Assembly: GCA_021234155.1 (NCBI GenBank) | Contig: JAJEKV010000064.1 | Location: 6,574,001-6,638,000, forward strand | Reading direction: 5' to 3' | Source: Isoetes taiwanensis | Taxonomy: Eukaryota > Streptophyta > Lycopodiopsida > Isoetales > Isoetaceae | Length of the DNA stretch: 64,000 bases | Shown here: in pieces, positions 20,875 through 61,975 of the stretch | Layout: each line of letters begins with the position of its first letter | Numbering within the stretch: position 1 is the stretch's first letter | Program-made: the position numbers and the translations under genes | The notes under the pieces: generated by a model | Told to the model about the DNA's origin: nothing | Seen by the model: only the letters and a program-made list of their open reading frames with translations | Database searches by the model: none

Positions 20875-20998
20875 ACAGCTTCACATAGAGTTGATGCCTT
20901 CATGAGACTCATGAACGATATATTTCGTGAGTTCTTAGATACCGTTGTCATTGTATTCTTCGATGACATACAGTAAGACCTTGGAAGAGCACGTCCAG
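20875..20998 (+). pseudogene. Inverted RT active-site segment
   Basis: On the plus strand, opposite to all neighbouring pol pieces, this stretch reads FMRLMNDIFREFLD, then VIVFFDDI, then (after a small deletion) YSKTLEEHVQ. These are the consecutive gypsy RT motifs that should follow [13 protein letters not shown] on the minus strand. The minus-strand reading resumes beyond it with CHFATEKVQYLSHIS, also in normal order. So about 124 bases carrying the catalytic FDD have been flipped in place. Confidence 0.8.
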
Positions 20999-21024
20999 CT
21001 GGGGATTGGACAGTCCGAGTGGCA

Positions 21025-23352: not shown

Positions 23353-23394
23353 CTTCGAACCCTTGAGCGAACCCTGCACGCAGTCGACTGCTAA

Positions 23395-24020
23395 ACACAT
23401 CTTCTAAACTATTGATGATTTCAAAAAACCATTCTACGATTGTAGAATTCATGTAAGTAAACATGATATGAACTAGCAGTGATTTTGCTAAGAAACTATA
23501 CACTTAAAAACAATCTCACAAACTAATTATTTCTATAAATCTTTGAATTAGTACAAAAAAATACGATATGAAGCACTATTGGTTTTGCAAAATCAATATA
23601 TGCTTAAAATACATCTTCTAAACTATGGATGATTTCAAAAAACTATTATATGATTCTAGAATTCATGTAATTAAACATGATATAAACTATTAGTGATTTT
23701 GCTAAATCGATCTATACTTAAAAACAACCTTATGAACTAATAATGATTCCTAGAAACTAGTGTAAATTTTTGAATTAGTACAAAAAATATGATATGAGCC
23801 ACTATTGGTTTTTCAAAATCAATATATGCTTAAAACACCTCTTCTAAACTATTGATGATTTCAAAAACCTATTGTACAATCGTAGAAGTCATGTAGTTAA
23901 ACAGGATATGATTTTGCTAAATCATTGTTCATTAAAAAACAATCATACAAACTAATGATGATTTCTAGAAACTACTGTAAATTTATGAATTAGTACAAAT
24001 AATATGATATGAACCACTAT
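23395..24020. repeat. Subterminal tandem repeat, right end of the 12.9-kb element
   Basis: Three direct units of about 216-225 bases start with CATCTTCTAAACTATTGATGATTTC (23396, 23612, 23837) and include GAATTAGTACAAAAAA and ACTATTGGTTTTGCAAAATC. They end about 120 bases before the right terminus, mirroring the 117-base repeats at the left end. Confidence 0.75.
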
Positions 24021-24149
24021 TGATTTTGCAAAACTAGGAAGAACACATGATTTTTCTTTACATTTTGTATTATCGTATAAAAAAATCACATATATACTGG
24101 TTTTCATGCTAATTTTTTATACAAGTTCATTTTTGGGGGCCTTGTGGGC

Positions 24150-27100: not shown

Positions 27101-27493
27101 CCGACATAATCCTGCACCATATGTTACAAGATAATTAAATAGAGGAGTTCACGCCAATTAATATTCATATATGTATATTTAAATTGTGATTCTTAAATGT
27201 GCAATTGTACCTTTATTTCTGAAAATACACGTCTTTCATCACTCTCGCGTTATATCCATATCTCCCATCCTCCAATTTCCTTATTCTCAGAAGTGACTTT
27301 CTCACTAGGATAACCTCTAAAGCGTCCTTCAGGGCATGGTCTAGTGTCAGGACCTTAAACTGCCACGCCCGAGGTCACGGGTTCAATCTTGGCCAATATC
27401 AATCTAGTAATGGGGACTTTAAAAATCCATTGTCCCGAGGTCATGGGGTCAAGTACGACCAACCGGTCTTGTGGTAGAGATCTTAAACCTGCC
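24150..27493. repeat. Block B, copy 2
   Basis: This is the right part of the second A-C-B unit, resuming immediately after the 12.9-kb insertion. It holds about 600 bases missing from copy 1 (25982-26585), including most of the ORF at 25844-26233, and the CCCCATT minisatellite at 26550-27000. It ends at ACCTGCC, exactly where the 27.4-kb element begins. Confidence 0.8.
25844..26233 (+). CDS. Hypothetical protein in block B (129 aa)
   Basis: The plus-strand frame reads LTKCPRYKFKKVLFCGTIYK, GDYVSSQELSEENHIESKG, FVHEFVGELKSYYKANYFYR and FGKTRFINSLVQKFIHVPYD. The composition is that of a real globular protein, and there are no internal stops. In block B copy 1 it is cut after ESK by a deletion. 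I do not recognise the family; it could be an exon of a repeat-encoded protein rather than a whole gene, and the ATG at 25844 is only the first available. Confidence 0.4.
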   Translation: MYFNNLDLTKCPRYKFKKVLFCGTIYKEGDYVSSQELSEENHIESKGNISTIFVHEFVGELKSYYKANYFYRGNKDPFTEAWILSLDIAFGKTRFINSLVQKFIHVPYDDTKILGYELIQPLTDQHVIF

Positions 27494-34089: not shown

Positions 34090-34240
34090 TCTACATGCCT
34101 TTTGTGCCTTTGTATTTTTTTTTAAAAACAGATGGTATATAGGCCTTAGTGCCTTCATTTGATCTCACCCCATTGTTGATCTCACCCCCTTGTGAACTCA
34201 CCCCTTGTGATACAGGCCTTAGTGCCTCTTTGTAATATAT
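34090..34240. repeat. GGCCTTAGTGCCTTT short repeats (left of the LTR element)
   Basis: Units such as GGCCTTAGTGCC and TGATCTCACCCC repeat here and resume at 47540-47850 beyond the LTR element, showing that the retrotransposon split one array. A 23-base T run precedes them at 34051-34073. Confidence 0.7.
34236..34240. repeat. Target-site duplication TATAT of the LTR element (left)
   Basis: TATAT immediately precedes TGTGACG at 34241 and recurs at 47535-47539 directly after the other LTR end. Five bases is the usual Ty3/gypsy duplication length. Confidence 0.85.
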
Positions 34241-35893
34241 TGTGACGTCCCCTACTCGTATACGGTGCACTCACCGTATACAAACGAGAGTTCTCCCCCT
34301 ATACCAGCTCCATGCCGATACAGGGCCCTCCACATGACAACTTTGCAGGTGGCGGGTTCGATTGGGAAGAGTAAAGGGGTCATTTTACCCCGTCTCCCTC
34401 AGGGCCTACCTAGCTGCGGAAGCGTAAACATACATGTCAGTATATAAGAGCAACACATATATCCACCCCTGGGGGTGGTACATCACATCTGCATAGACAA
34501 TGATCATCGGCCTGATACATAGGGGAATCCTACCCGGGCTCGGACTCAAAGGGGCGGTGGCGGCTTGGGTCTCCAGTTCGTTCAGACGAGAATCATGACA
34601 ATGGATTGGGCTGGCATAAGAACATGGCACCTTTGGGTTGTCCACTCCATCCGCCCCTCCTGTGCACACTGCGAGTAGGCTGAAAAGTGTTGGGACCTGG
34701 ATCAGAGCCCGCCCGGATGCATAGCCAAGGGGCTATTCACGGGAGTTTCATCTCCCCGGTTCGATGGGGCGGGGAGAATCACTCCCCCCGAGATCTACCT
34801 GTGACTCAAGGTGACTAGAGGGCCCTTTGCCCGTGATTGTTGAACCCACTGGAAAGTGAACACCACTTCACGGGTGTCGAGTCCATGCCTTATCCGCTTT
34901 TCGGTGGTAAGCCATTAGACCTAGTCACAATGATCCCGGTGGGCCGCCTTACACACCCGAGGATGGATCGTTCAGTCGAGCAGGAACCTCCTTCTTAGCC
35001 CGGTCGGCCCCTTCACCCACAACCAGGTGTGGTTCTTGTACCACAGGCGAATCTATAGTGTGCTAGAGGTTAATCTAGGAGCATCTACTACCAAGCTTGA
35101 GGTCTCTACCCCCTTCCCAATACAAGGAGTTCATAGAGATACATCATCCATATATATCACAGAAGAACTAAAGAACTATATCTAATCTATATCATAGAGT
35201 TAGGTTCTTTAGTTAGAGTCTGATATCTAGAGATCTAGAAGGCTGCTATGGGCAATTTAATAGGCTAAACCTCTTGATTCTATGGTGAAATAGGGTTTAG
35301 ACTATTCAATTGGCCAAATACTGATCCTTGAGTGGCTCCTCGACTGAGTTTGACCATCCTGGCTTGAAACGGCTTCGAATCAATGGAAATTAATGGTGCA
35401 ATTCTCTCGAGGCCGAGTGGGAGGGCGGTTTGGCTCTTGAGGCAGCCAAAGCGAGCTCTAAAACCCTAGAAACGAAAAATGGGCAAGTTAGGGTTTCCCT
35501 CCTTAAATAGACATGGGGTTGGCTAGGGTTTCCAATTATCCCCTTTAGGCATGTGGGATAATTGGGAATGGGCCCACTGCCTTTAATGGCTAGGTGGCAA
35601 AATGTGCCCACATGGAAATGTGTGCCCACATTAATGTGTACATTGGAAAATGTGCACATTAATTGCACACAGGTATGGCCACTTGGCATCAAGTGTCCAT
35701 ATGGAAGTGTGTGCCCACATTAATGTGTACATTGGAAAATGTGCACATTAATAGTTGCACATATTCCTTGCAAGTTGCCCCCTAGGGCTACCCACTGGCT
35801 ACGTTAGGCGTACCGTCGGTCGGGTGGCGTGTCGCGGCGTGGCGGCAAGATGCGATATCGTCACGGGGCCGTATCGCGTCCGGAAGCGTCACA
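34241..35893 (-). repeat. 3' LTR
   Basis: It aligns with 45900-47534 throughout (for example TATACCAGCTCCATGCC, AACCTCCTTCTTAGC and GCTAGGGTTTCCAATTATCC). It begins TGTGACGTCC and ends GCGTCACA. The two LTRs differ at many positions, largely small indels and changes around CTG/CAG/CCG. Confidence 0.9.
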
Positions 35894-35909
35894 TTCCCCC
35901 CACCTTGAA
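35894..35909 (-). other. Polypurine tract
   Basis: On the minus strand the bases immediately before the 3' LTR read CAAGGTGGGGGGAA. This is a purine-rich plus-strand primer in the expected position for an element transcribed on the minus strand. Confidence 0.85.
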
Positions 35910-36789
35910 ATGATCTTTGTCCAGCGACATCGGTAGGTCTCCACCTTGGGATCATCCTAACTTTTGCAATCAACCTGATATATCACGATAAACTACTATA
36001 ATACTTACATTTATTAAGATTACCTTAAGGTAATATTTTTTAAAACATTATCAACGCCATTATATTGAAATAACTTATCAATTCATAACATCTTTAAGCA
36101 AGTTACTTTCGATAGTTTTACTTATCCGCGACAATTAAGTTTATCAAAATTTTAACATTTCATGTCTAACATTATTGTTCGAGGTACTCTTCATTCCTTG
36201 CAACACATTCCAACAAAATTTGTGTTGCAAGTCTTCAAATAACTTCGACCTCCTTGCCCTCTGGGCTCTCTATTGGCTGCGGTCGACACTACGTTAGTAC
36301 CATTTTAATTATTAATAAAATTTTGGTTATATGGTGACCACCCCATCTATCTACATGGATGCATGGCTAATCTCGTGGGAAGATGGTGAATCTTCCATTA
36401 TGGCCGTGGAGGCGGCCTATATGCCTATATGCGCTCATGCCTACACCCTAGTTGCCCGGTGGAGGATAGGTCCTTCCGTATATGAGGCGTGAAGGCACGA
36501 TTCCTCCTATCAAAGCATATATGGGGCTAGAGGTGCTTTTCCTATCGGTGCATTCCTTAATGACCTCCTTTCTCTAGGTCGGGGTCTACTTCCGTGGGAC
36601 GGTAGACTTTCTAATCTACCTTCCACTTTCGCCCAAAGGAAGAAGCGGTCATGCCTACATTGACATTACACCGCCCTAGAGATCACCGTGGCGGTCCCAT
36701 CATCCGGTACAACGCATGCGACCCATACCTAGCATAGGTTGCATCGTGTGAATTAATCTTAACTACCCAAGAATTAATCTACACAAATC

Positions 36790-36990
36790 GACATGCACGG
36801 CCCGATTTCTTGGGATATGACTTTGCCGTCCCATTGCTCCATAAAGCTGGTGCTTTGCTTTACTAGATCTTTCTTAAGTACCCGCGTCGCGTCTTCCACC
36901 CAGGTAAGTGTTTCCACTTAACCAAATATTGGAGGAACTCCGACCTCCTTCGTTTTCTTGAAAGCTTTATCAAGAATCAATGCGGAATTA
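36790..36990 (-). pseudogene. Chromodomain of the integrase C-terminus
   Basis: Across frames the minus strand reads YLVKWKHLP, then WVEDATRVLKKDLVKQ, matching the chromodomain core Y-L-V-K-W-x-x-x-P-x-x-x-x-T-W of plant chromoviruses. Just upstream, on either side of 37040, KLDLPKTPK and LLKKHTPNPHLSLGHSNVVE give the usual link from integrase. A frameshift splits the domain after HLP. Chromodomains of this kind read methylated H3K9 and guide integration into heterochromatin; the aromatic cage cannot be fully checked because of the shifts. Bases 35910-36790 contain no other gene. Confidence 0.6.
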
Positions 36991-37129
36991 TTTCCGGCTG
37001 CTCCTCTGTCATTTCAACAACGTTGGAGTGTCCAAGACTTAAATGCGGATTTGGAGTGTGCTTCTTCAACAAACTCCGTGGAAGACCTTATGAATCTTTA
37101 GGTGTCTTTGGCAAGTCTAGCTTGTAGGA

Positions 37130-38229
37130 TTGATTACCTACTCTTTTGACTATTACGAAGGTCCAGCCCATCTTGGAGCAAGCTTCTTGCAATTCCGATC
37201 TGAGCTTAGCTGCTTCACCTTGATCTTGAGCCACACATTGTCACCAACCCGAACTCCACGGTTGTTCGATGCTTGTCGGCGATGCTCTTTTGTCGGCTCC
37301 TTGCTGCTAGCGCGGATACCCTCGAACCTCTTCCACGAGCTGCTTTGCATGTCGGCCAACATCTGCTCTGCGAAACTTCCACTTTTGACCGGGGGTTGTG
37401 CCAAGTGTCCTGAGTTAAACAGCGATAACCATAATTAATCATAAGCGGCGACATTTGGGATGATTCACGCTTGGTGCTATTGTATGCAAACTCCACCAAG
37501 TGAATAAATTCTTCCCATACCTTGCTTATTCGGGGCGTAGTTTAAATAGCATGTCTTCCAAAATCCTGTTGGTCCACTCCGTTTGGCCATCCGTCGAGGA
37601 TGATGATCGCATCATGGATAGTTTAAATGCAGATAGTGCATAAAGAGGTCTTGCCGAGAAGGCACTCATAAACTTTGGGTTCTGTCGGAGATAATCTCCC
37701 TTGGCATGCCATGAAGCACGAAGATCTCTTTGGTGAAGAGCTTTCTTTGTATCCATAGCCATGTATCGTGGTCACGCAAGGCCACAAAATGTGCCATCTT
37801 CGACAACTTGTCGACTACTACCATCAAGGCGTCCTTTCCTCTTACTGTTCTTGGAAGCCCTGTGATGAAATCCATGCTGATCACCTCCCACTTAGCGTTT
37901 GGCACCGCTAATGGCTCTAATGCCCCTGGAATTCGAAGCTGTTCTGCCTTCGTCTGCTGACATAGCTGACATTCCTTGATGTAGCGAGATACTTGCTTCT
38001 TCATTCATGGCCAATAATAGCTGCTGCGCACTTTGAAATATGTTTTCATGAATCCTCCATGGCCAGCTATTGGACTGTTGTGCGTGTCATGGAGGATCAA
38101 TTTCCTTATGCCTGATGATTCGGGTACGCACAACTTGTTCTTATGGTATAACAGGTTGCCTTCCTTCTTATAATGTTTAAACGCTTCCCGCTCCTTATAC
38201 GTTCTAGCCTCCCTAGAGGGCTTGCCCAT
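37130..38229 (-). pseudogene. Gypsy integrase
   Basis: The HHCC zinc finger is visible: LILHDTHNSPIAGHGGFMKT (38005-38229), then YIKECQLCQQTKAEQLRI (37666-38004). The DDE core follows: VISMDFITGLPRT, VVDKLSKMAHFVAL, then DGQTEWTNRILEDML with the catalytic Glu (37526-37762), then VEFAYNSTKRESSQMSP. The domain ends with KKLAPRWAGPS near 37153, the GPY/F-type module leading to the chromodomain. It is broken into several frames, so it is not functional as read. Confidence 0.85.
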
Positions 38230-38274
38230 ACTTCCTTGAAATCGGCGTCCGTTGGCAAGGATTCTTCAATCTTC

Positions 38275-38760
38275 TTACCAAAAGTCGGCCGGAGGCGTCG
38301 AAATTGCATTGCAATGCACTCTAGTTGTCGGGGATGCCTTGAAAGCATCCGCTACCACATTGAGCTTCCACGGCTTGTAGACTATATCAAAGTCATACTC
38401 TTCAAGGAACTCCATCCACCTTCTCTGTCTCGGGTTGAGGTGTGGTTGCGTGAATATATCTTGGAGGCTCACGATGAATGCGTATCCAAGCTGGAACTTC
38501 CTTCCCAAAGATAGTGTCTCCAAATTCTTAATGCCACGGCGGTACCAAGCAATTCGATGCGTGGGTGGGGTAAGCGGCGTTTGGCGTCGTTCATCTTCAC
38601 GGAATCATCGCTACCACACGCTCTTCTTGCATGAGCCTTTGCACATAGCTATCTTACTCGCGGCGTCTGTGGCTACAAGCTTATCTTTCTCTCCGGTCCC
38701 GGGGTTAGAATTTGGGGGGCTGTTGTTAAAGCTTCCTTCAACAATTCAAACCACAGCGGG
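38275..38760 (-). pseudogene. Gypsy RNase H
   Basis: It reads [40 protein letters not shown] and LNVVADAF, the C-terminal RNase H region (RQRRW..L..YDF.I.Y..G..N.VADALSR). The upstream part (38540-38760) has ACSxTDAAS-like pieces split by shifts. Confidence 0.75.
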
Positions 38761-38874
38761 CTTTCTTGTGCCAATGCTGCGCCCAATCTTTCACCTTCTC
38801 CGCCCCTCGTCAGTGTTTACGTTAGGGGCGCTATCTTAGCAAAGTTCTTCCACGAACTTCCTGTAGTACCACTG

Positions 38875-39657
38875 CTAGGCTGGTAGAAAACTTCTGACTT
38901 CATGCACATTCTTGGTAGCCCGCCAGCTGAATAGCGGCTTCAATCTTGGCGGGATCGAAGTGAGATTCCTTCTGGCGAGATCACATGACCCCGGGTATTC
39001 CACCTTCTTTGTTCTTGGTGACGCCGACAACTTGGCGCATAACCGGTGCCTCTTCAACTTCTCTAGCACTCTCCTTAAGTGTTGTGCGTGCTCTTCAAAG
39101 GGATCTGCTATACACCAAAATGTCATCAAAGAATACAATCACAAAGGTGTCTAAGAACTCCCTCAAGATGTCGTTCATGAGCCTCATGAGCGTCGCGGGG
39201 CATTCGATAAGCGAAAGGCATTACCGTGAACTCATAATGCCCATCTGCAGCGTTCTGAAGGCGGTCTTGTGGATATCTTCTTCCTTTATCCTGATCGATG
39301 ATAGCGACCTTAAATTCGATTTTGGAGAAGACCTTTGCACCTTGGGCTGATCCATCAAAATTAAATGCGATCTGGGGGCGCATACTTGTTCTTAATGGTG
39401 TGCTTGTTCAAGCGCCTATAGTCTATGCACATCCTTAAACTGCCATCCTTCTTCTTTACAAAGAGAATGGGTGCTCCAAATGGCGAGACACTAGGTCTAA
39501 TGAAGCCTAGGTCGAGCAACTCCTGCAATTGCTTCTTTAGCTCCGTCAACTCTTGCGTCGTCATTCTGTATGGAGCCTTACTTGTCGGCTTTGTTCCCGG
39601 TTCGAGTGCTATCTCACATCGACTCCCACAAGGGAGGAAGCTGCTTGATCTCATCAC
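38875..39657 (-). pseudogene. Gypsy reverse transcriptase
   Basis: It contains [51 protein letters not shown] and, at 39122-39130 on the minus strand, VFFDDILVY with the catalytic Asp pair. HLRRVLEKLKRHRLCAKLS, PGHVIS-type and VHEVRSFL motifs follow. At least three frameshifts interrupt it. The RT reading is closely related to the fragment at 21025-21342. Confidence 0.85.
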
Positions 39658-39683
39658 GGAAAGAGACCATGGAACTCAGGTGA

Positions 39684-40169
39684 TCAGTGAGCTATTTGCT
39701 TGACAACTTCTTTGAGCACCTTGTCTTCTTTGCTTTCTTCTGACTCTGGCTCGTTAATCTCAAGCTTGAAGATGTATGCTACCTGCTCGCTCTTGATGCA
39801 CTTGAACAGCCGTTTAGAAGACATACACTGCATGATGGGAACAACTTCTTTACCTGTAATCTCAATGATCTTGCCGTCGGGTGTTGGGAAGGTCACCTTC
39901 CGCTTTCCACAATCAATAATGGCCCCTGCTGGTCCAAGGTACTCCATTCCTATGATCAAGTCGTACTTGCCAATGCCCATTACTTCTGCCCCCATCTGGA
40001 TATTAATCCCTGGTAAGTCGATGTCGAAGTTGATTCTCTTGCCTGCCGTCTGCCTTACTGCTCCACTTGCTAAGACAACGGGCCTTGGCTTTGACTTTAG
40101 TGGTTTCAACTTCAACATTTGAACCATTCTGGGGGATGCAAAGTTATGGCTACTTCCTGAGTCTATCAA
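39684..40169 (-). CDS. Gypsy aspartic protease and linker
   Basis: This 161-codon open frame starts MIDSGSSHNFASPRMVQMLK with the active-site DSG (the DTG equivalent). It continues NIQMGAEVMGIGKYDLIIGM, the conserved ILG/IIGM flap-side motif, then EVVPIMQCMSSKRLFKCIKS and an acidic linker to RT. It is the least damaged pol segment. The natural product is processed from gag-pol, so its ATG is incidental. Confidence 0.85.
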   Translation of the reverse strand: MIDSGSSHNFASPRMVQMLKLKPLKSKPRPVVLASGAVRQTAGKRINFDIDLPGINIQMGAEVMGIGKYDLIIGMEYLGPAGAIIDCGKRKVTFPTPDGKIIEITGKEVVPIMQCMSSKRLFKCIKSEQVAYIFKLEINEPESEESKEDKVLKEVVKQIAH

Positions 40170-40355
40170 GACTATGAAGGACTTGGTCTTGGCCTTCCCT
40201 CTTGTGGAAATTACTTTATCTTGGCTCTCTGCTTTGCTCTGTATCTATTAAGCGGCAAAGATATGACACTCACCACAGAATGTAGTCGCGGCCTTCCTGC
40301 GCCATCGTCGTCAGGGCCAGTGTCCCAATCTCCCAACTCACGCTAGTCTTTGCAC

Positions 40356-41434
40356 TCATGGCGTAGGCGGTTTCACGCCCCTATGGCCTGGTGGAAACAC
40401 ACGAAGCAAAAGCTGCTTTTCTATGCACTCCTGTCTCTTTTCCTTGGGCATAGCCTGCAAAAAGGATCGCACTGCTTTGGAGTAGTTTGACCCCTCCTGC
40501 TTGTCCTTGAAGGACACCTCCTTCTTCTCCTGCTGTTTCCCCTGGTTGCCACCATATGGGGCTCTAGCTTGACCTGGACTGGCTGCCCTAGGGCTATAGC
40601 TTCCTGTTGCCTTGCCTTTATCCTGGTAGTGCTGCTGCCTCTGCCCGCTATTCTGAGGTCCCGTTCCTTGCAAGCTTATTGCCTTGGACTCTGCTTCCGA
40701 CACTGTCTTAGGATTTATTGCCCTCACAAGCTTGCGGATCTCCTCATTCAGCCCCTCAATATAGCTTTCTACTGCATGCTTCTCACACAATTTTGGCACA
40801 TACAGCCTCAGCCTCATGAATTCCTCTGTATACTTCGGGCCATTTGTTGCCTTCTTTGCAACTTTAGAGAGCTGCTTTGCATCATCTTGGACTTATGTTC
40901 CCTTGGGACGTAATGGCGCTTGAAGGCTTTAGCAAACTTTCTGAACTTACAAGCATCCCTGCTTAAGCCATGTGCCTTTGCATAACCCTTCCACCAAATC
41001 CGTGCGGCTCCTTTCAAGTTGGCTGTTGCCACTCTGCCTTTGTCTTTATCCTTCATGCCATAATTCTTGCCGGTACTCACTCATTTAGTCCGACCATGCC
41101 TCTGCTTCTAATCGACTGTTCTCCCAGAAGCTGTTCGATTCGGCCCTTCCATACATTGCCGGTCGCGGAATCTACCTTCTTACGGTAGTCGAGGCCACAG
41201 TGTCCCTTTGTCGTCCGTCTATGGCGTCCCTCGCCTTGCATCTGCGGTGTTCCTGCGCCTTCGCGTTTGTTTGTCTGGGCACGCTCTTCGTCTTCCTCGG
41301 AGTCGGAGTCTGAATTTGAGCTTGAGTCGGAAGATTCCGGGCTGGAGGATCTCCTTCTCTTGTTCCTCTTCTTGTCCCTTCCTGCTCTCCGAGCTGATGC
41401 TTGCGGCAACTGAGCGTTGCCCACCGAACCTCAC
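40356..41434 (-). pseudogene. Gag
   Basis: Minus-strand pieces in order: an SR/acidic head (NKRRRSSSPESSDSSSNSDS, 41219-41434), KDKGRVATANLKGAARIWWK with the gag LKGxAxxWW core and FRKFAKAFKRHYVPREHKSK (40814-41080), MRLRLYVPKLCEKHAVESYI and SEAESKAISLQGTGPQ, then SNYSKAVRSFLQAMPKEKRQ (40356-40817). An obvious CCHC knuckle was not resolved because of frameshifts. Frame changes between pieces prevent a single product. Confidence 0.75.
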
Positions 41435-41839
41435 CTTGCTTTGCGGACCAGCAAGGCCTTTATCTGCTCAAGGTCCGGTCCTCATCACGGGATATTTCCT
41501 CTTAAAGGGTCATGGGTCCAAATTCCTCGAGCGGGTTCCTTGCGGAGGTGGCTTTTGAGCGGACTTCTGTTCTTCTATATGGTCTCGGCATTGTCGTTCC
41601 CACGAGCTTAGGCCTCTAGCGCATACACAAGTAATTCATGGCTATATGGTTAGTTTTACTTGTTCTCTTGCATTGTTTATGTTTGTTGGTATAGTTGTGG
41701 GGCAAAAATACATCAACAAAACATTTAAAGTCTGCAGAAATTATATTCATATATTATATAATATTTTAGTACAAAAGTCTCGGGATCAAAAGAGTCTAAC
41801 TAGTCTTGGAATGGCCCAGTAAGGCGGTTGTCTTCGGGA

Positions 41840-43316
41840 ACTTCTTAACTTGGGCGTTCCTCTTAGAATGACCCAAGTTCACGATGGCGCTTTGGCGGCG
41901 AGCCTGCAAAGCTCTGCGCCACCCTTCCACCTAGCGATTAAATTTTGTAAGGGCCGCGGTCACCGCCAATCTCGCCTGCCGTCGATGGGGTATGGCAAAG
42001 TTGAAGAGGTCAAGTACCATTGCCCTCTTGACTAGGACATCATAGTCGACGTTTGCCGCTATTCGAGCATGCATGCGAAGCACGAGTGCAATCGGCATGA
42101 ACACCCCTTCTTCACCTCGGGGGCTGAACTTGCGATTGTATCAATACTCTCCCATCTAGCAGCAGCGGTAGGTAGTACCTCAGGGATCTGTCATTGTGCG
42201 TCGCGGATGATTCTCCACTTGTTTGGCCTCCTGCTCTCTATGCGGCGTGATAAATTCGACCTCTATCTCGGTGAGAGCTCGGTAGTCTTCAATTGTGGAG
42301 TCGACTGCTTTGGGTCGATTCTGCTCCTCTTGCTAGGGGTGGTGTCGAAGGTGCAGGCATTAGGATGCTCGTGGTCTTCCCACGGATCCCCATCTGTTCT
42401 TGGAGGCGAGGAACTCCTCCTCAGTTAAGCGGCTCTCTCGTCCATCATTTGCACGATCTTTCTTTGTAGGCTTGGATGTGGGAGTGACTCCCACAATGTA
42501 GGTGTCGGCCTCCCTCACTTGAAGCCCGAGGAAAGTCAGGGCTCCCGGGACGATGAAGTCGTCCAAGTTGGACTGCCCGTGGGCTGGTGGGCAGTTCATC
42601 AATCCCGAGCTCCCTCTCCACGCATTGGGGAAGGTTACGGATGTCGTGAGGAGTAGATACTCCTCTCCCGTTGATGATGATAGGGGCTAGGCTTGTGATG
42701 CCTAGCCCAAGTGAGAACAATTACGATGAGTCTGGCTCTCACTTTCGAAGTTGACCAGCTCACATTACGCTTGTTGCCGTTCTTCCTGCGAGTCGAGCTC
42801 GGAGGTGTACTTATTGTCGTCCACTCCTCTTCTTCTTCCTCTGCTCTTTCACTGCTCTTAGCGTCTGCCGAAGCATCTCTCCTCCTCTGCTTGCGCTGCT
42901 ATGGGGTCCACCTCCATCGGAGGGATAGAGTTGCCCCATTGGGTTTTATTTGTGATTGGGACAAGAAAATAGCTAGAGGCGGTGTGTAGGAGAAATACTT
43001 GGTCTGTTGGCTGTCGGGGACCATGTAGTCTAACGACCTCTGCCTTGTTAGTTAGGTACTTGGCGATGTTGGGGACATCACCCAAGGCTGCTTGAAGGGA
43101 TGGGCGGGAACAAAATATCCTATGCAAGGGGAACTGAACAAGGGAGGGTCCTACCCTAGCTTGAAACTCTGCTAACACTTGCCTATATCTTTGGGGTTGC
43201 ATTTAAGCGTAACTTGGATATCAATTTCTTTCCCAAAGACTTGGAAGATGTCGTTGACATCCGCCTCGGCACATGGAGCCTTGGCGTACGTACCATCGCT
43301 GAAGTCGGCGGTGGCC
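41840..43316 (-). pseudogene. Extra ORF2 between the 5' LTR and gag
   Basis: An ATG at 43316 opens MATADFSDGTYAKAPCAEAD, VNDIFQVFGKEIDIQVTLKC. One frame over come QPQRYRQVLAEFQARVGPSL, LGDVPNIAKYLTNKAEVVRL and TDQVFLLHTASSYFLVPITN, then a basic stretch. Later pieces include LGITSLAPIIINGRGVSTPH, LDDFIVPGALTFLGLQVREA and (minus, about 41930-42100) GVFMPIALVLRMHARIAANV and VKRAMVLDLFNFAIPHRRQA. Together they suggest a single protein of roughly 450 residues broken by shifts. I do not recognise it. It is co-oriented with gag and preceded by the palindrome pair at 43615-43890. Confidence 0.5.
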
Positions 43317-43614
43317 ATTGATCTAGCGAAGAAGAGAGTATCGAGCAGTCTGAGAAGCGCTTGGAAGATCGCCCTAAGCGATGGAGAGCAAACTTGCGGG
43401 GTGCTAAATGAGAAATGGAGGACCTATTTATAGAAAAGGGAAAACCCTAATTTTTGGATGACCTAGAATTTACTGAGATTAGGTGACTCGATCTATTAAA
43501 GGGGTGCAATTGAGAATTTGAGGACTATTTTTAGGTTTGAAGCATGTTAAGAACAACTAATGAACCTATTGCAACAATTTGGAGATTATTTGGTGAAGAA
43601 AGTGGTCTTGAGGT

Positions 43615-43890
43615 CTCACCGTTAGCGCCCGGGCCGATAATGAAAAGTTCATTTTACGTCTGGCGGCGTGTGAAGACATGGGTTCTAAATGGGCTAAACT
43701 TAATCAATTTGGATAATCTAAAGCTTTTGTAATTCTACTAAACTTCGCCGAGTTAGGCAAAATTGACCCCTTATTTGGTCGATTTGGGCGATCTTGGGCA
43801 TTTATGGGCATGGTCTCTGCGTTCTTGCCCGGCGAAAATGAGAATCTCATTTTTACGTCTGGCGGCGTGTGTGAGACATCGTCTCAATTT
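43615..43890 (-). promoter_or_regulatory. Palindrome pair upstream of ORF2
   Basis: Two related motifs about 200 bases apart: GCCCGGGCCGATAATGAAAA then TTCATTTTACGTCTGGCGGCGTGTG (about 43627-43672), and GCCCGGCGAAAATGAGAATC then TCATTTTTACGTCTGGCGGCGTGTG (about 43828-43872). The second contains the perfect inverted repeat AAAATGAGA-A-TCTCATTTT. The same pair occurs upstream of ORF1 (45450-45700). It could be promoter, processing or translational control sites; the role is inferred only from position. Confidence 0.55.
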
Positions 43891-44009
43891 TGCTTAACAA
43901 CTCCAATTTACCCAAAATAAAAGCCCGGTCGATATCTTAACTTAATTAAACAAGATTGAACTCATTATTTACACAAAAATTCTTTATATTAACAAAAAAT
44001 TTTATTATT

Positions 44010-45258
44010 TACAAGAAGTTCAAAGCGTTCTCCTTTGATGTATGCGGCCAAAAACATATCTGCCTCATGGCGTGACCCTCTTGGCGTGCCGCGGTGCGAG
44101 GCCATTGAATCTTCAAATGCTTTGCACTATTTTACGCCTCTGCTGCCTCACGTAGGCCTGGCGGCATCTCATCGGTCACCCGCATGTCCGTGTTGTACTC
44201 TGCATGACTTCTCGGACCAAAGCGTTGAAAGCGGTGCGGGGATCAAGAGTCCGTAACTTCTCACGGAAGTGCGGATTTCCTTGAAACTCTCTCTCATACG
44301 CTTGCTCTTGCTCCGCTTCTTTCACGGTGCTCACGGGAGGCTTGGGCTTTGGTGGTGGCGGCTTGAGGTCGACTCCTCGTCGGTGTCCCGCTTCAATTGT
44401 CCGGTACCACAATCTTTGGCGGTAATAAGCATTGTATGCCTCCCACTTCGCCATATAGGCGTTGTGCTCCTTAATCTTCTTCTGATAGACCTTGACCGGG
44501 TCTATCACATGCCTCCCGTTGTGGCCGCGGGGCTTTAACCCTATCCCACGTCGGGAAAGGTGGGGGCTTCTGCGGCTGTCCAGGCTGCTGCTCATTAGGT
44601 ACCACCAGCTCCGGTACCTCCTTCTCTGCGACTGGGGGTTTCGAGGAACTTGCCCCCTCAGTGTTGGGGACGTAATCTTCGTCCGAGTCGTCGGTGGAAG
44701 GTGGGGTTTGCTCGCCTGATGGTTCATTGATCACGGGACCCTGCGCCCGCTTACCAACCTTGACGACTCTTCTGCCGCCCGCCTTGATGCTCTTGGCCTT
44801 CCTCTTCTTCGGCCCGCCGGCTGTGGTTGGGTCGTCTTCCCGGTTCTTCGTCCTCTGCTCCCGGCGGTGCTCCTTGTCTTCATACTTACTGATGAAGGCC
44901 GCGAGGTCTGCTTCTTCGGCAGGGCTAAGCCACGGCTGCCGCTGCCTCTCTCTCTCCCCCTCCTCCTGCAGACGGGCCCAAGCCTCGAGTTGCTCCTCGA
45001 CTGTCGGCTGCCCTATCTGTTCCCGTTGCTCCCTGCTTCTCCTTTCCTCCTCTGCGATCTCCTCGAGAATTTGCTCCATAATGTCTGGCCGCTCCTCCTC
45101 TATGAGTCGCTCCGGTCCGATCCCTCCTCCTCATTTGGAAGAAGATTAAGCCTTCTTGGGAAAAGGCGTTCTTGCGGTATCCTCAATCGGGCGGGGTCCT
45201 TTGCGCCGGAGGATCCGCGTCGGCGGGGCTTCCTGGCGGTCTGCTTTGTGCGGGCCAT
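44010..45258 (-). pseudogene. Extra ORF1 with histone H3-tail-like N-terminus
   Basis: The ATG at 45256-45258 (minus) opens MARTKQTARKPRRRGSSGAK, running to a stop at 45100. Its first ten residues equal the invariant H3 tail including K4, R8 and K9; H3 similarity ends there. One base over, the frame continues as an acidic coiled-coil-like region (MEQILEEIAEEERRSREQRE, 44471-45079), a basic patch GGPKKRKAKSIKAGGRRVVK, acidic TPPSTDDSDEDYVPN, a proline-rich stretch, then (44176-44727) KVYQKKIKEHNAYMAKWEAY and ALVREVMQ, ending near ADMFLAAYIKGERFELL. So one protein of about 400 residues is likely, broken by a few shifts. It lies first after the 5' LTR. The function is unknown; H3 mimicry is a hypothesis. 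Confidence 0.6.
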
Positions 45259-45449
45259 GTTTGATGGTTCGCCGATCCGAGCTATGCGCCAGAAGATCTC
45301 CTTGGCAAAGGAGAGCAGATTTTTCTAAGCAGGGTACGCGAAATTGAGGGGGTCGAGGTCTATTTATAGGGGTCGATTTTAGGTCAAACTTCAAACTACC
45401 TTTTTTTTGGGTTGCCTAAAACATTTAAAACACCTAAATTTAAACATGG

Positions 45450-45700
45450 TCTCACCGTTGCCCGGGCCAGATAATGAAAAGCTCATTTCACCTCTGGCAC
45501 GGCGGCGTGTGTGACATGGTGAAAACCTCTTGCTAGATTTTATGCTTTCTACACATATAAGATGCTCATTTTACTAATTCTTAACTCAAAATTAGAATTA
45601 TCAAGTTAATTTTCTGTGATTTGTGACTTTTTGGTGTGTTTAAGCTGAATGTCTCACACGTTGCGCCCAGCCGAAAATGAGAATCTCATTTCCTGTCCTG
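45450..45700 (-). promoter_or_regulatory. Palindrome pair upstream of ORF1
   Basis: Motifs GCCCGGGCCAGATAATGAAA..CTCATTTCACCTCTGG..GGCGGCGTGTG (about 45455-45512) and GCGCCCAGCCGAAAATGAGA..TCTCATTTCCTGTC (about 45664-45702) match the pair before ORF2 in order, spacing (about 200 bases) and orientation. ORF1 starts about 200 bases downstream on the minus strand. Confidence 0.55.
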
Positions 45701-45883
45701 GCTCACCAATTTCAGTCTTTTTATGTTTTCATTATGTTTTCAGTCACTTCTAACTGTTACTAGCTTAGCATCTACTACAAGAATGAGAAAAACTTTTCCC
45801 CACTTTTCGAGGTTTAAGGATCCTATCGAGTTAGTACTCTTTGGGAACATGGTGGATGCTTTGCTCTTGGTGCGCCAAGAACA

Positions 45884-45898
45884 TTGCTCACGATACCA
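45884..45898 (-). other. Primer-binding site (Met-tRNA type)
   Basis: Immediately inside the 5' LTR on the minus strand, one base after the LTR end, the sequence reads TGGTATCGTGAGC. This resembles the plant initiator Met-tRNA PBS consensus TGGTATCAGAGC with one substitution and one insertion. It is a priming site, not a tRNA gene. Confidence 0.75.
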
Positions 45899-45899
45899 G

Positions 45900-47534
45900 C
45901 GTGGCGTCCCCTACTGCGTATCACGGTGCACTCACCGTATACAAACGAGGAGTTCTCCCCTATACCAGCTCCATGCCAATACGGGGCCCTCCACATGACA
46001 CTTTACCGCAACCGTGGCGGGTTCCGATGGGAAGAGTGAAGGGGTCATTTTACCCGTCTCCCTCGGGGCCTACCTAGTTCTTGAGCGTAAACATACATGT
46101 CGGTATATAAGAGCAACACATATATCCACCCACGGGGTGGTACATCCCATCTGCATAGACAATGATCGGCACAATACATAGGGGAATCCTACCCGGGCTC
46201 GGACTCAAAGGGACGGCCCGGCGGCTTGGGTCTCGAGTTAGTTAGAGCGATGAATCATGACAATGGATTGGGCTGGCATAAGAACATGGCACTGGGTTGT
46301 CCACTCCATCCGCCCCTCCCATGCACACTTTGCGGTAGGGCGAAAAGTGTTGGGACTGGCCCAGTAGCCATGGGATGCATAGCCAAGGGGCTATTCACGG
46401 GTTTCATCTCCCGGTTCGATGGGGCGGGGAGAATCACTCCCCAGAGATCTACCTGCTGACTCAAGGTGACTAGAGGGCCCTTGCCCGTGATTCGAACCCA
46501 CCGGAAAGTGAACACCACTTCCGCCCGGGTGTCGAGTCCATGCCTTACCGCTTTCGGTGACAAGCCATTAGACCTAGTCACAATGATCCCGGTAGGCCTT
46601 ACACACCGGAGGGATGGTTCAGTCGAGCGGGAACCTCCTTCTTAGCGGTCGGCCCCTTCACCCACAACCAGGTGTGGTTCTTGTACACAGGCCGAATCTA
46701 TAGTGTGCTAGAGAGGTTAATCTAGGAGCATCTACTACCAAGCTTGAGGTCTCTACCCCCCTTCCCAATACAAGGAGTTCATAGAGATACATCATCCATA
46801 TATATCACAGAAGAACTAAAGAACTATATCTAATCTATATCATAGAGTTAGGTTCTTTAGTTAGAGTCTGATATCTAGAGATCTAGAAGGCTGCTATGGG
46901 CAATTTAATAGGCTAAACCTACTGATTCTATGACTGAAATAGGGTTTAGACTATTCAATTGGCCAAATACCTGATCCTTGAGTGGCTCCTCCTGACCTGA
47001 GGTTGACCATCCTGTTGGCGCTTTCGAATCAATGGAAATTAATGGTGCAATTCTCTCAGGCAGAGTCTGGGAGGCGGTTTTGGCTCTTGAGGCAGCCAAA
47101 ACAGAGCTCTAAAACCCTAGAAACGAAAAATGGGCAAGTTAGGATTTCCCTCCTTAAATAGACATGGGGTTGGCTAGGGTTTCCAATTATCCCCTTTAGG
47201 CATGTGGGATAATTGGGAATGGAACCACTGCCTTTAATGGCTAGGTGGCAAAATGTGCCCACATGGAAATGTGTGCCCACATTAATGTGTACATTGGAAA
47301 ATGTGCACATTAATTGCACACTTGGGTATGGCCCACTTGGCATCAAGTGTCCATATGGAAGTGTGTGCCCACATTAATGTGTACATTGGAGCACATATTC
47401 CTTGCAAGTTGCCCCCTAGGGCTACCCACCTGGCTACACGTTAGCGTACACGTCAGTCGGGGTGGCGTATGCAGCGTGGCGTGGCGATCTGATGCTACGT
47501 CACGGGGACCGTATCTCGTCACGGAAACGTCACA
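45900..47534 (-). repeat. 5' LTR
   Basis: This LTR of about 1,635 bases is collinear with 34241-35893. The left border is degraded (CGTGGCGTCC for TGTGACGTCC); the right border GTCACA is intact and followed by TATAT. Transcription of the element is expected to start within it on the minus strand; no TATA box was assigned. Confidence 0.9.
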
Positions 47535-47539
47535 TATAT

Positions 47540-57663: not shown

Positions 57664-57924
57664 TTACGGCTTTCCAAATGTTCCAAAAGCAATATAAATT
57701 ACGGTGTTATGAAAGCTCTCATTATTTTGAACAAAAGTAATAAGGTTATCATTTCTCACAATACCAAATTTTTCTGTAATCCAATTCCAGAAACTGTTTA
57801 ACTTGGAACAATAAAAGATGTGGCACATATCTTCAACAGCATTACATCCCATAGGGCAATTTGGCAGAATGTTGGGATTCCTCTTGGATAAAGTATACAA
57901 ATTATTTAAGCTGCCATTAGCCAA
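57664..57924 (-). pseudogene. LINE zf-RVT tail
   Basis: The frame reads NILPNCPMGCNAVEDMCHIF, then YCSKLNSFWNWI, the C-x3-C...H-x4-C zinc-binding region after LINE RT. It is a different family from the fragment at 7621-8241. Between here and the poly(A) tail (56648-57660) only short frames are seen. Confidence 0.7.
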
Positions 57925-59039
57925 ATAAAGTATATGAAATTTTTGGAGGCCGAGAAAGAGTTCGGTTTGGTATTAAAAGCGAGTCTTAAGCTGATCCTGA
58001 TTAATACCCCATTTAATCATGGCTTTGCAGTTATTAGGATCAAAGGAGAGAGCATTATAAACATGTTTAACTTTGTAATCATCTTTCCCTTTTAGAGTCC
58101 AATCCCCTTTATCAGAGTTAGGAGCAGGATTAGAAAGAAATGGCTTCATAAAAGCATAGACATTTTTTATCGAGAAGAGGTTCCTTTGATGATATTTTTG
58201 AGAGAAGTCAAAATAAGCCTACCTCGGAAAAAAGATCTACGATAAAATAAAACCAGCTTCTTGCCATTTCTTACAGATTCTTGGATGTTGAATGGCCAAA
58301 AGCGATAGAATTTTTGCTCGAGGCAGAATGGGGTTCGAGAAAATAGGCTGATCAACATGAAGTTTGTCTGCAGAGATGAACTGAAAATTCGGGGAGATAG
58401 AATTCCAGGCCTTTATCAAATTGCCCATTAGAGGAGAAATATTGGAGGCAGGTTTCAACTGAACAAAAGCAGAGTTAGGTAAAAGATGTTGGATGGAAGG
58501 ATGACCATAGGGATGGCTTTGAGTAATCCAATATCTGATAAATTTATATCTGGAGGATTGATTCCCATGAATAGCCTTCAAACAAACTTCCACAAAAGAG
58601 CTTGGAGAAAGAGATTTTTACAACCAAGACCACGAGCTCTTAGATTTACAAATAGAGTTCGATTGACTAAATGACTACCTTTCGGATAAAATTCCTTATG
58701 GTTTTCCAATTCGGATACACACTTTTAGGAGCAATAAGAGCATTAGAAAGTAAACATGAGAACTTGCAAGGACCGAGTTGGCTATGATAGTTACACCCGA
58801 CAAAGAGATAGTTACCATAGTTATTCAGCTTCTTCTTTATTCTTTGAAGAATAGGTTCCCAAAGGCCTTTAAGAGTATGATTCAATGAAAGGGGCATGCC
58901 CAACAATTTGGTAACTTGACCATAAGGAAGCACATTAATGCCAAGTAGGCTGGCTGGTCGGGGATATCACCAATGATAAGACTTTTGTTGATGTTGGGCC
59001 GGATACCAGAAGGCTGGAATTGATTGATGACTTTAAAGA

Positions 59040-59868
59040 AAACAATCAATATTGGCCAAGTCGGCATGGAGGAAGGAGAAGGTGTCATCAGCATATTGAA
59101 GCATAGTCAAATCATCATTTGAGTTGGGCATCTTGAGATCTTTATGAGGCGGAGGCTTGATAGTGACAGATAACCTTTGTTAGCAAATCAGGTACGCAAC
59201 GAGGAATAAATAAGGAGCCAAAGGGGCAGCCTTGTCTTACCCCCGGGAGAGAGGGAAGAAACGGAAGGCACCCCATTGATTAGAACAACAGATTTGGCTT
59301 TGGAATTCAGTCCAATAATCAGGTTGATTAAGTTGTCAGGGAAGCCAAGTTTAGACATAGCAAATTTAAGAAAGTCCCATCTGACAGAGTCAAAAGCACG
59401 TTTGAAATCTAATTTGAGAAGGATACAATTCTGATTGGAGATCTTGTTCCAGTGCAAACCTTCCATAGCTGCCACATAATTATCTAGGATGTATCTCTTA
59501 GGCAAGAAGGCTGATTGATTATGGCTGATATTTCTCTGGAGGAAGGAGTTAATCCTTAAAGCTATGATCTTGGCACACATCTTATAAGAAGAGTTTGTAA
59601 GAGATATAGGTCTCCAATCTTGGAATTTGGCAGGATGATCTACTTTAGAAATCAAGGAGATAAAGCCACTAGCTATGGAGGTTCGAAGATGACCACTATT
59701 CCAGAAGTCATGAACCATTAAAGTAAGGTCATTTTTGAGGACGTCCCAGAATTTAACATAAAATTCAGCAGGCAACCCATCTGGACCAGGGGATTTACCT
59801 TTATTAAAGGAGGATAGAGTGGCGAATTTCTGCTTTGAGAAGGAAGAAGCGATAATAGAGTCATCCAT
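59040..59868 (-). pseudogene. LINE reverse transcriptase
   Basis: It contains FNKGKSPGPDGLPAEFYVKF, LISKVDHPAKFQDWRPISLT, QSAFLPKRYILDNYVAAMEG and LLKLDFKRAFDSVRWDFLKF. Near 59240 the GVRQGCP motif is present but in a shifted frame. DLTMLQYADDTFSFLHADLA at 59060-59110 carries the catalytic YADD (59084-59095). The motif set is that of plant L1-type LINEs. At least two frameshifts inactivate it. Confidence 0.85.
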
Positions 59869-60844
59869 GATTTGATGCTTGAAGGAAGAATATTGTTCAC
59901 AATGTTCATGAAGTCATTAGCCTCTGCAATATTGTTGGGAGGAATTGGCTTATTATTGAAAATATCCATATATTTATCTCTGAAGAAGTTGGAAATATCA
60001 GTGAAGTGTATTTTACGCCATTCTCATCTTGGATCTCGGCAATAGATTTTCTCAAGACCACTGCTCTTAGCTACCCTAAAAAATTTGGAGCTACGAGTCC
60101 ATGTCATTAGTATATTTTATTTTGCATCGATACTTGAGATCCCTTAGCTTCTATCTCCTCAATACTTTTGATTTTTCTCTCTAGAATTTCTTCCCCTATA
60201 TGAAGATTTAGATTAGAAGGATCTTCATGGAGTAAAGATCTGATGTCTTTCATGACCATCATAAGATGATTTTTTCCTTTTGCATAGAGAGTTTCTAGAT
60301 TTAGACCAGCTCTTAATCGAGGGCTTTTATAGCTTTGATTTTGGAGTAGAAATAACTCCCATGATCTTTGATTCCTATTATCATGAGCCATCTTGTTCAT
60401 GTTGATGGAAAGATTCTCATAGAAGGTAATGAATTGAGAACAAAATCCTCATTATCGAGGAAGAGGAGTTAAATTTATAAAGGTGTACTTCCACGTCTCT
60501 GAATTTTGGTGATATGAGGGTATGAAAGAAAACGAAATTTTGGTGATCGAGATAGAAGTACCTTCATCCTTTGGTGACATAACTATTATCCCAAAAGGGT
60601 GAGGAGGGATTAGATACATAGAATCTGTCCAAGGTACAAAAGACCCTATCCTTGCCCTTTTGCTTATTAGACCAAGTATAGCGGCGTGAAGAAGAGGATA
60701 TAAATCAAACCATTATCGGTTAGAAGAGAATCCCAATTACGTTTCTCATTTCTGGTCATATTAATCTTGTTCCCTAGCTTAAGATCCCAAGAAGAAGTAT
60801 TATTAAAGTCCCTGCAATGATCAGGTTGTCAATATTTTGAGAGC

Positions 60845-61234
60845 TCAACCCGGCCGGTTAATTTCAGACCCAGTTGGCTCCCCTATCCTTGGGAGTAGTA
60901 GGAGCATAAACATTGATAATGCCAAAGATGGAATTAGAAGAAGAGAATAATAAGCGCTTGCCCAGGGCTTTAGAGGGACCATTATGTGAAAAATATGATT
61001 GAGGTTGCTCTTCCAAATGATTGCAAGACCTCCACTTGCACCACTCGAATCAATCCAGATGGAAGAGGAATTAGGATAAATCCAATCTCCCAAATTGCTG
61101 CACTCAAAGGAGGGAAGCTTAATCTCTTGAAGGAGAACAATATCAGCATTATAAAGTCTAATCTGTGCAATAGCACGTCTTCTTTTAAGAGGACCTTTGA
61201 TACCTCTAAGATTCCAGGAAAGGATCTTCATCAA
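60845..61234 (-). pseudogene. LINE APE endonuclease, N-terminal part
   Basis: ORF2 begins MMKILSWNLRGIKGPLKRRR (catalytic Asn in WNxRG), ADIVLLQEIKLPSF (catalytic Glu in LQE) and GASGGLAIIWKSN. This is the start of the apurinic-type endonuclease that nicks the target. A stop follows at about 60845, and later pieces (60107-60400, RLRAGLNLETLYAKGKNHLM) connect towards the RT. Confidence 0.85.
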
Positions 61235-61323
61235 GGAAGAAGAATAAAGAAACAGGAAGAAGAATTAGATATTGGATTTTTTGGTTCTCTTCTTACTCCT
61301 AGTATTTTGAGCAGGGGTTTTAT

Positions 61324-61766
61324 TCATGGCAGATAAATCTTTCCTAGGTTATTCCCTTTTTTTTTAGCAGATTTTTTGGAAGGCTGTTTGATTTCAGAAA
61401 TAGAAAATTGGCTATTGTTTTCCATAAGGTATTCTTCTTTTCCCCAATTTTCTTTATCAGAGCCATAATCCTCACTGTCACTAAAATCAGAGCAACCACC
61501 AGGATAAAACTGAAACATAGTATTATTATTAAGAGTATTTAATGGAGCAGAATCTGGTACTTGCCTTAAGACTTGATTTCCTTGAAGCTCCTTTTGCTCT
61601 TCAACTTTGTCTTCTGGAGTCTCAGGAACAAAGTCAGCATCATGTACCTCATTTGTATCCTTATCTTGAGAACCAGCCTGGGCAAATTCCTCATGAAGCA
61701 CTTCAAAATGAAGAGAAGCTAGCTGATCTGCAATCTTGCTGGATATTCTTGGAGGACTAATAGAAT
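61324..61766 (-). pseudogene. LINE ORF1 C-terminus
   Basis: An acidic, low-complexity frame open to the 5' end of the element reads LHEEFAQAGSQDKDTNEVHD, DSEDYGSDKENWGKEEYLME and a basic end KKSAKKKGNNLGKIYLP before a stop at 61324, just upstream of the ORF2 start. It is consistent with the C-terminal tail of a plant LINE ORF1. The N-terminal part is missing. Confidence 0.5.
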
Positions 61767-61975
61767 CTTCTCAACCATCCTCCTTTTATGACCTTGTAAT
61801 TTAATATCCCATACTGTTAATACCCTTTTCTCAAAAATCCCCCCTTCGTGATTTTGTGTTTAATATCCCCTTATTCCGTCCATACCCCTCTTCTCAACCG
61901 TCCCCCTTTTGTGACCTTATATTTAATATCCCGTACTTCGTTAATACCCTTTTCTCAACAATCCCCCTATGGGTC
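61767..61975. repeat. Block A, copy 3 (right part)
   Basis: After the LINE, the block A minisatellite resumes (TTCTCAACCATCCTCC, CCCGTACTTCGTTAATACCC) and matches copy 2 up to CTCAACAATCCCCCT at about 10481, after which homology stops. Confidence 0.8.

What the first reader, a model, noticed from the sequence alone, without database searches (positions are those of the whole stretch)
45100..45258. Retrotransposon ORF begins with the exact histone H3 tail
The minus-strand ATG at 45258 encodes MARTKQTARK, identical to H3 through K9, then diverges into a basic, then acidic, protein. It is the first ORF after the 5' LTR of an element that also encodes a chromodomain. In cells the H3 tail is read and modified at K4 and K9, and chromovirus chromodomains bind methylated H3K9. 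A K9-methylatable peptide on an element-encoded protein could recruit or compete for H3K9 readers, or tether particles to the element's own integrase. The peptide match is seen directly; the mimicry role is inference.
Basis: partly seen in the sequence, partly recalled or inferred. Interest (0 to 1): 0.88.

Follow-up and report, generated by a model that had tools for sequence, protein, structure and literature searches.

The report
Retrotransposon gene starting like histone H3
An old, broken plant-type jumping gene carries an extra gene whose protein begins with exactly the same first nine residues as histone H3, apparently behind its own promoter; the match is real, similar elements seem to have been described before, and whether the tail does anything is untested.

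Summary
The peptide is real: the minus-strand ATG at 45258 opens MARTKQTARK, identical to H3 through K9 (position 10 is P, not S), in a 52-codon frame. Chance is unlikely here (5e-9 to 2e-7 for this window; of 9 exact occurrences in the prokaryote collection only 2 are not H3). The host is a decayed Ty3/gypsy chromovirus (34241-47534, minus). New here: this ORF and a second extra ORF (ATG 43318) each follow a matching module of repeated motifs and CTATAAATAG, whose first downstream ATG is the ORF start. 5' extra ORFs of chromoviruses are known, and I recall (paper not held) that some grass members were reported as partly similar to histone H3. Most likely an acquired H3 5' end on a nuclear accessory protein; N-terminal H3 mimicry is plausible but unproved. 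Conservation, the decisive test, is open: the genome search did not complete (24 tries) and no second copy was seen.

The parts
34241..47534 (-). Ty3/gypsy chromovirus copy, decayed, flanked by TATAT on both sides (34236-34240, 47535-47539)
   Evidence: LTR pair 89.5% identical; TG...CA ends and TATAT flanks read from sequence
45902..47534 (-). 5' LTR
34241..35893 (-). 3' LTR
45886..45898 (-). primer binding site, initiator-tRNA-Met-like TGGTATCGTGAGC (tRNA sequence recalled)
   Evidence: read from sequence
35894..35906 (-). purine-rich tract next to the 3' LTR (AAGGTGGGGGGAA)
   Evidence: read from sequence
45672..45691 (-). motif A upstream of ORF1 (AAATGAGATTCTCATTTTCG; 8-bp inverted repeat AAATGAGA/TCTCATTT)
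   Evidence: exact 20-mer at two places; shuffles give 0.00 matches at up to 3 mismatches
45470..45488 (-). motif B upstream of ORF1 (AAATGAGCTTTTCATTATC), within a 76-column repeat unit
45360..45369 (-). TATA box CTATAAATAG, 111 nt before the ORF1 ATG
45100..45258 (-). ORF1 N-terminal frame, MARTKQTARK start, 52 codons and stop
44474..45130 (-). ORF1 middle piece in another frame (219 open codons; basic/acidic, NLS-like PKKRKAK by eye)
   Evidence: coding-like GC by codon position
44180..44502 (-). ORF1 C-terminal piece, helical in a single-sequence model of pLDDT 66.2
43833..43852 (-). motif A upstream of ORF2, identical to the ORF1 copy
43636..43654 (-). motif B upstream of ORF2
43424..43433 (-). 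TATA box CTATAAATAG, 115 nt before the ORF2 ATG
41934..43318 (-). ORF2 region, ATG 43318 (MATADFSDG...), broken into pieces; 3 of its 7 pieces were scanned against Pfam, no match
40359..41056 (-). gag capsid pieces
   Evidence: PF03732 2.1e-5, PF19259 9.7e-5
39687..40127 (-). protease piece
   Evidence: PF08284 E 0.0039, 17.4 bits, below curated cut-off 20.3
37669..38229 (-). integrase pieces
   Evidence: PF17921 4.1e-9, PF00665 7.6e-4
36866..36976 (-). chromodomain fragment
   Evidence: PF00385 E 0.0011, 19.3 bits, below curated cut-off 25.1

Best explanation
This is a decayed copy of a plant-type chromovirus (Ty3/gypsy) with two extra genes between the 5' LTR and gag. The first, ORF1, encoded a probably nuclear protein of roughly 400 residues whose start is an exact copy of the H3 N-terminus, most likely gained from a host H3 gene (5' end capture by transduplication or recombination) and possibly kept because it is useful. 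ORF1 and ORF2 were probably transcribed from their own TATA promoters, not only from the LTR: two copies of one regulatory module precede them, and the first ATG after each TATA box is the ORF start. Inferred mechanism: after removal of Met the protein shows a free A1-R2-T3-K4-Q5-T6-A7-R8-K9 end, which would engage or compete for host proteins that bind the H3 N-terminus (PHD, WD40 or LSD1-like pockets), helping the element's promoters escape or tolerate silencing. Shown: peptide, element, modules. Inferred: expression from these promoters (about 0.6), origin from H3 (about 0.65), mimicry as a selected function (about 0.3), preference for N-terminal/K4-side over K9-side readers (about 0.2).
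For: Exact 10/10 match in the right register at a start codon, far beyond chance for this window. Good start context (A at -3, G at +4); the only ATG of that open frame and the first ATG after CTATAAATAG. Module duplication: 81.6% over 76 aligned columns, E 3.9e-15; best score 66.2 bits against at most 23.8 in 60 shuffles; identical 20-mer motif A; order A-B-TATA-ATG the same at both places, spacings 203/198, 119/221 and 111/115 nt. Eleven ATGs between the primer binding site and ORF1 make translation of ORF1 from an LTR transcript by scanning unlikely. Charged composition with 9.3-11.4% P in the three ORF1 pieces and a helical C-terminal piece resemble the 5' aORF protein of sunflower Tekay elements (402 aa, NLS, helices, disorder, 15.9% P; PMC11728184 section 2.5 read).
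Against: No second copy was seen, so neither conservation of the ten codons nor of the modules is tested; the related gypsy copy in the same window shows no such start (no further match to the H3-start pattern in the window except an imperfect LTR pair; raw frames 20501-24200), though its 5' part is rearranged. Beyond position 9 nothing resembles H3; no histone match in Pfam. The sequence match is not significant in a plain PDB search. CTATAAATAG twice is not remarkable alone (expected 0.23; 3 of 100 shuffles reach 2), and the B-to-TATA spacing differs (119 against 221). Expression is not shown. No relatives of ORF1 in three protein searches, so the protein's extent is uncertain; the 52-codon frame could be a leader peptide before an ORF starting at 45079. 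The authors of PMC6317226 ask whether such divergent extra ORFs have any function at all.
Confidence: 0.5

Rival explanations
1. Neutral relic: recombination or transduplication joined the 5' end of a host H3 gene to an existing accessory ORF; the tail is only a convenient start codon with a basic stretch and has no mimic function.
For: Gene capture by plant LTR elements has been reported many times (PMC13317346 and PMC7264820, passages). A published survey (Steinbauerova et al. 2011, not held, recalled) ascribed H3 similarity of some chromovirus extra ORFs to transduplication or recombination. The match stops sharply after codon 10.
Against: Exactly the N-terminal part is kept without a change while the LTRs differ by about 10%, though ten codons of one copy are too few to test constraint. 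PMC7264820 argues that antisense extra ORFs, at least, are not transduced genes.
Confidence: 0.35
2. K9-methylatable mimic that recruits or competes for H3K9 readers or binds the element's own chromodomain.
For: T-A-R-K context intact up to K9; chromodomain fragment present.
Against: P at +1 outside published +1 preferences of animal and yeast enzymes; chromodomain appears to lack two of three cage aromatics, and cage-bearing chromoviruses were found only in non-seed plants (PMC6317226).
Confidence: 0.08
3. The 52-codon frame is a separate leader peptide or upstream ORF, and the real accessory protein starts at the ATG at 45079.
For: The frame closes at 45102-45100; the next frame has its own ATG at 45079.
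Against: The two open frames overlap (45130-45103), charged composition runs on, and the element is full of frame changes elsewhere, so a single broken gene is simpler.
Confidence: 0.15
4. Chance peptide match.
For: Two of 9 occurrences in the prokaryote collection are not H3, so a scan of hundreds of Gb will meet one now and then.
Against: Window-level chance 5e-9 to 2e-7, and here the match sits at the expected start of an accessory gene behind a promoter-like module.
Confidence: 0.04

Closest known systems
5' additional ORFs of Tekay-clade chromoviruses (RIRE3, RIRE8A/B, Retrosat-2, FRetro3 in grasses; sunflower Tekay group 2)
   Same: Sense extra ORF between 5' LTR and gag of a chromovirus; in sunflower 402 residues, P-rich, with NLS, helices and long disorder (PMC11728184, passages and section 2.5). 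I recall that Steinbauerova et al. 2011 (Genetica 139:1543, not held) reported partial similarity of some grass chromovirus extra ORFs to the histone H3 gene.
   Different: Clade of this element not determined; no sequence comparison with those proteins was possible; two extra ORFs, each behind a repeated motif/TATA module, is not described in the passages I saw.
VANC anti-silencing proteins of VANDAL (Mutator-like) transposons
   Same: Element-encoded protein plus repeated short motifs in non-coding parts of the same element (PMC5735166, PMC10398659, passages).
   Different: DNA transposon; no H3 tail mentioned there; DNA binding of ORF1 or ORF2 to motifs A/B is only a guess here.
SNAG domain proteins (SNAI1, GFI1) and LSD1
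   Same: N-terminal peptide that mimics the H3 tail in a transcription regulator (PMC5896174, passages).
   Different: A P2A change in the GFI1 SNAG domain blocks LSD1 binding; here residue 2 is A, as in H3 itself.
Influenza NS1 H3-like tail
   Same: Parasite-encoded mimic of the H3 amino-terminal tail (PMC12937675, passage).
   Different: C-terminal in NS1; N-terminal and exact over nine residues here.

Membership tests
Chromovirus (Ty3/gypsy LTR retrotransposon) | LTR pair, TG...CA ends, 5-bp target duplication | tested here: met
Chromovirus (Ty3/gypsy LTR retrotransposon) | gag, protease, RT, integrase in gypsy order | tested here: met
   gag, protease (weak) and integrase pieces by Pfam; the RT pieces scanned gave no Pfam hit in this copy, so RT is placed by 74% nt identity to the related copy at 21021-21457, whose RT scores 5e-12
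Chromovirus (Ty3/gypsy LTR retrotransposon) | chromodomain after integrase | tested here: met
   PF00385 E 0.0011, below curated cut-off; only a fragment, the frame breaks there
Chromovirus (Ty3/gypsy LTR retrotransposon) | tRNA-Met primer binding site | tested here: inconclusive
   TGGTATCGTGAGC next to the 5' LTR; plant tRNA sequence recalled
H3K9me-binding (type I) chromodomain | three aromatic cage residues | tested here: not met
   W at site 2, L at site 3, none seen at site 1 (by-eye alignment of a frame-broken domain)
Tekay 5' additional ORF group | sense ORF of about 400 codons upstream of gag | tested here: inconclusive
   position and sense met; region 45258 to about 43990 is 1.27 kb but broken into frames
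Tekay 5' additional ORF group | element belongs to Tekay clade by RT/RH/INT tree | not tested
   no reference set at hand; domains are frame-broken
Tekay 5' additional ORF group | sequence similarity to known members | not testable with these tools
   three protein searches without hits; no plant element library held
Histone H3 | exact N-terminal tail | tested here: met
   10 of 10 residues incl. Met, then divergence
Histone H3 | histone fold | tested here: not met
   no Pfam histone match in the ORF1 N and middle pieces or the C-terminal frame
SUV39-type K9 substrate | accepted residue after K9 | tested here: inconclusive
   P; published preferences R/K/S/T, S/T or S>K,R>T, animal and yeast enzymes only; plant enzymes not looked up, no assay
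SNAG-type LSD1 ligand | proline at residue 2 | tested here: not met
   A at residue 2; requirement from PMC5896174 passage

The most novel reading that the evidence does not exclude
A chromovirus family encodes, from its own internal promoter, a nuclear protein that shows an exact free H3 N-terminus (A1-K9) to host H3-tail readers, while a second accessory gene under the twin promoter shares its regulation through a palindromic motif found in this window only in these two modules: a two-gene, VANC-like anti-silencing cassette in an LTR retrotransposon that works by histone N-terminal mimicry.
Probability: 0.12. Interest if true: 0.85.

Novelty: new variant of a known kind. Interest (0 to 1): 0.45.

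Why it matters
The function of the extra ORFs of plant LTR retrotransposons is unknown (PMC11728184; PMC6317226). An exact H3 N-terminus gives one of them a concrete, testable hypothesis, histone-tail mimicry by a transposon, and the twin promoter modules suggest that such genes may be expressed apart from gag-pol.

Tried and rejected
Protein searches with the 52-aa frame, the 202-aa frame and the C-terminal part: no hits; 2, 383 and 68 word-sharing candidates respectively. The first two could only reach proteins of about 29-91 and 111-353 residues, so longer relatives would have been missed there. PDB search with 52 aa: none. Viral-contig scans with the H3-start DNA pattern (0 matches), an integrase piece, the ORF1 middle piece and the related copy's RT piece (1, 3 and 70 stretches, none confirmed by tblastn). 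tRNA and Rfam scans of the window: none. Paralogy of ORF1 and ORF2 proteins: nothing below E 0.3 by blastp (one search had used two wrong frames, redone). Similar motif elsewhere in the window: two imperfect matches at 4914 and 25665, one LTR pair of another element, reading KGSTKQTS; taken as chance. Single-sequence structure models of an ORF2 piece (mean pLDDT 52.6) and the ORF1 C piece (66.2) were thought too weak, so no fold search was run. Literature on H3-tail starts in retrotransposons; among the rows listed (2 of 2, 20 of 965, 20 of 66, 2 of 2, 12 of 12) no title or abstract start describes one. Steinbauerova 2011 is not held, so its content is recalled, not read. PMC7264820, a review of extra ORFs, does not use the word histone, and PMC3726574 neither.

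The plant host is inferred from the kinds of elements, not identified. A plain chance match, a K9-centred mimic and a SNAG-type ligand were considered and ranked low for the reasons given.

Full report
What is there. On the minus strand, the ATG at 45258 opens MARTKQTARKPRRRGSSGAKDPARLRIPQERLFPRRLNLLPNEEEGSDRSDS and stops at 45102-45100. The first ten residues are those of histone H3 with its Met; the eleventh (H3 position 10) is P instead of S. Under three composition models of the window the chance of ARTKQTARK after a given ATG is 1.8e-12 to 8.0e-11, or 5e-9 to 2e-7 for the 2775 ATGs of the window. As an empirical control the degenerate pattern was run over the prokaryote collection: 9 hits, of which 7 run on with STGGK as H3 does (taken for contamination) and 2 do not. 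So the match is real and not expected by chance here, though a very large scan would meet a few by chance. A plain PDB search with the first 20 residues lists H3 only, best E 0.33, which is not significant by itself.

The element. The ORF lies in a 13.3-kb LTR retrotransposon on the minus strand (34241-47534), with 1.6-kb LTRs 89.5% identical over the BLAST alignment, 136 substitutions and 39 gap events in a global alignment of the LTR slices, TG...CA ends and TATAT on both sides, a tRNA-Met-like primer site and a purine-rich tract. Pieces of gag, protease (weak) and integrase match Pfam; RT is placed by similarity to a related copy; a chromodomain fragment follows the integrase. The genes are broken by frame changes.

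Two extra genes with twin promoters. About 4 kb separate ORF1's start from the gag capsid pieces. ORF1 is followed by a second extra ORF (ATG 43318; 3 of its 7 pieces were scanned, no Pfam match). Upstream of both lies the same module: motif A (20 identical bases, with an 8-bp inverted repeat), motif B inside a unit 81.6% alike over 76 columns, and CTATAAATAG. The best leader-to-leader score is 66.2 bits against at most 23.8 in 60 dinucleotide shuffles. In each leader the first ATG after the TATA box is the ORF start, 111 and 115 nt on. The TATA decamer alone is not significant (3 of 100 shuffles reach two), and motif B lies 119 nt from one TATA box but 221 nt from the other; order, ATG spacing and the motifs are what carry the case. 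Eleven ATGs lie between the primer site and ORF1. The simplest reading is that ORF1 and ORF2 had promoters of their own. Expression is not shown.

What the tail could do. With Met removed (usual before Ala; general knowledge), the protein would show A1-R2-T3-K4-Q5-T6-A7-R8-K9. Proteins that need the free H3 N-terminus could accept it. K9 is less convincing: P follows it, and SUV39H1, SUV39H2 and Clr4 prefer S, T, K or R there (passages; no plant enzyme was looked up). Nor is the element's own chromodomain a likely partner: at two of the three cage sites I see no aromatic residue (by eye), as in type II chromodomains of seed plants, whose partners are unknown. I read these as moving the likely target from K9 to the N-terminus. 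That is inference.

Comparison with the known. Extra ORFs upstream of gag are known in Tekay chromoviruses; the sunflower one is 402 aa, with an NLS, helices and long disorder, present in 500 of 523 group members, and grass members exist in RIRE3, RIRE8A/B, Retrosat-2 and FRetro3 (PMC11728184, passages and section 2.5). From memory, the abstract of Steinbauerova et al. 2011 states that part of the chromovirus extra ORFs, found in grasses, have partial similarity to the histone H3 gene and probably arose by transduplication or recombination. The paper is not held. If my memory is right, the core of the finding is already in print; the exact N-terminal register and the twin promoter modules are what this window adds. 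Against function: the broad survey PMC6317226 finds extra ORFs so divergent that it asks whether they have any.

Limits. The decisive test, other copies, could not be made: the genome search did not complete in 24 tries, and three protein searches found no relative. The one related element in the window shows no such start. One broken copy cannot show constraint. The host is unidentified.

Noticed in passing
window 20900-21950 (-), LTR-like pairs 3407-6137 and 24143-27493: A second, related gypsy element (RT 74%, gag 70% nt identity to the first), with other repeats nested in it; no H3-tail start seen in the raw frames of 20501-24200.
   Followed up: partly
window 43570-43900 and 45410-45715 (-): Four copies of a repeat unit, two of them with an 8-bp inverted repeat AAATGAGA/TCTCATTT; a candidate regulator binding site.
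   Followed up: partly
window 12875-13405 and 14609-15141: 98% identical direct repeats flanking a 280-codon minus-strand open frame at 13711-14550: looks like a small non-autonomous LTR element with an ORF.
   Followed up: no
window 57667-61770 (-): By eye, a degenerate LINE-type non-LTR retrotransposon (endonuclease and RT-like frames); another such-like frame at 7624-8295 (-).
   Followed up: no
window 15535-17577: Divergent tandem array, units about 64-71% alike.
   Followed up: no
window 4914-4936 and 25665-25687 (-): Imperfect match (3 mismatches) to the H3-start DNA pattern, reading KGSTKQTS, in both LTR-like copies of the second element; probably chance.
   Followed up: no
window 34241-35893 vs 45902-47534: LTR differences are clustered around CG-rich spots with many short indels, which may be methylation-linked decay or assembly error; some frame breaks in the ORFs could have the same cause.
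   Followed up: partly
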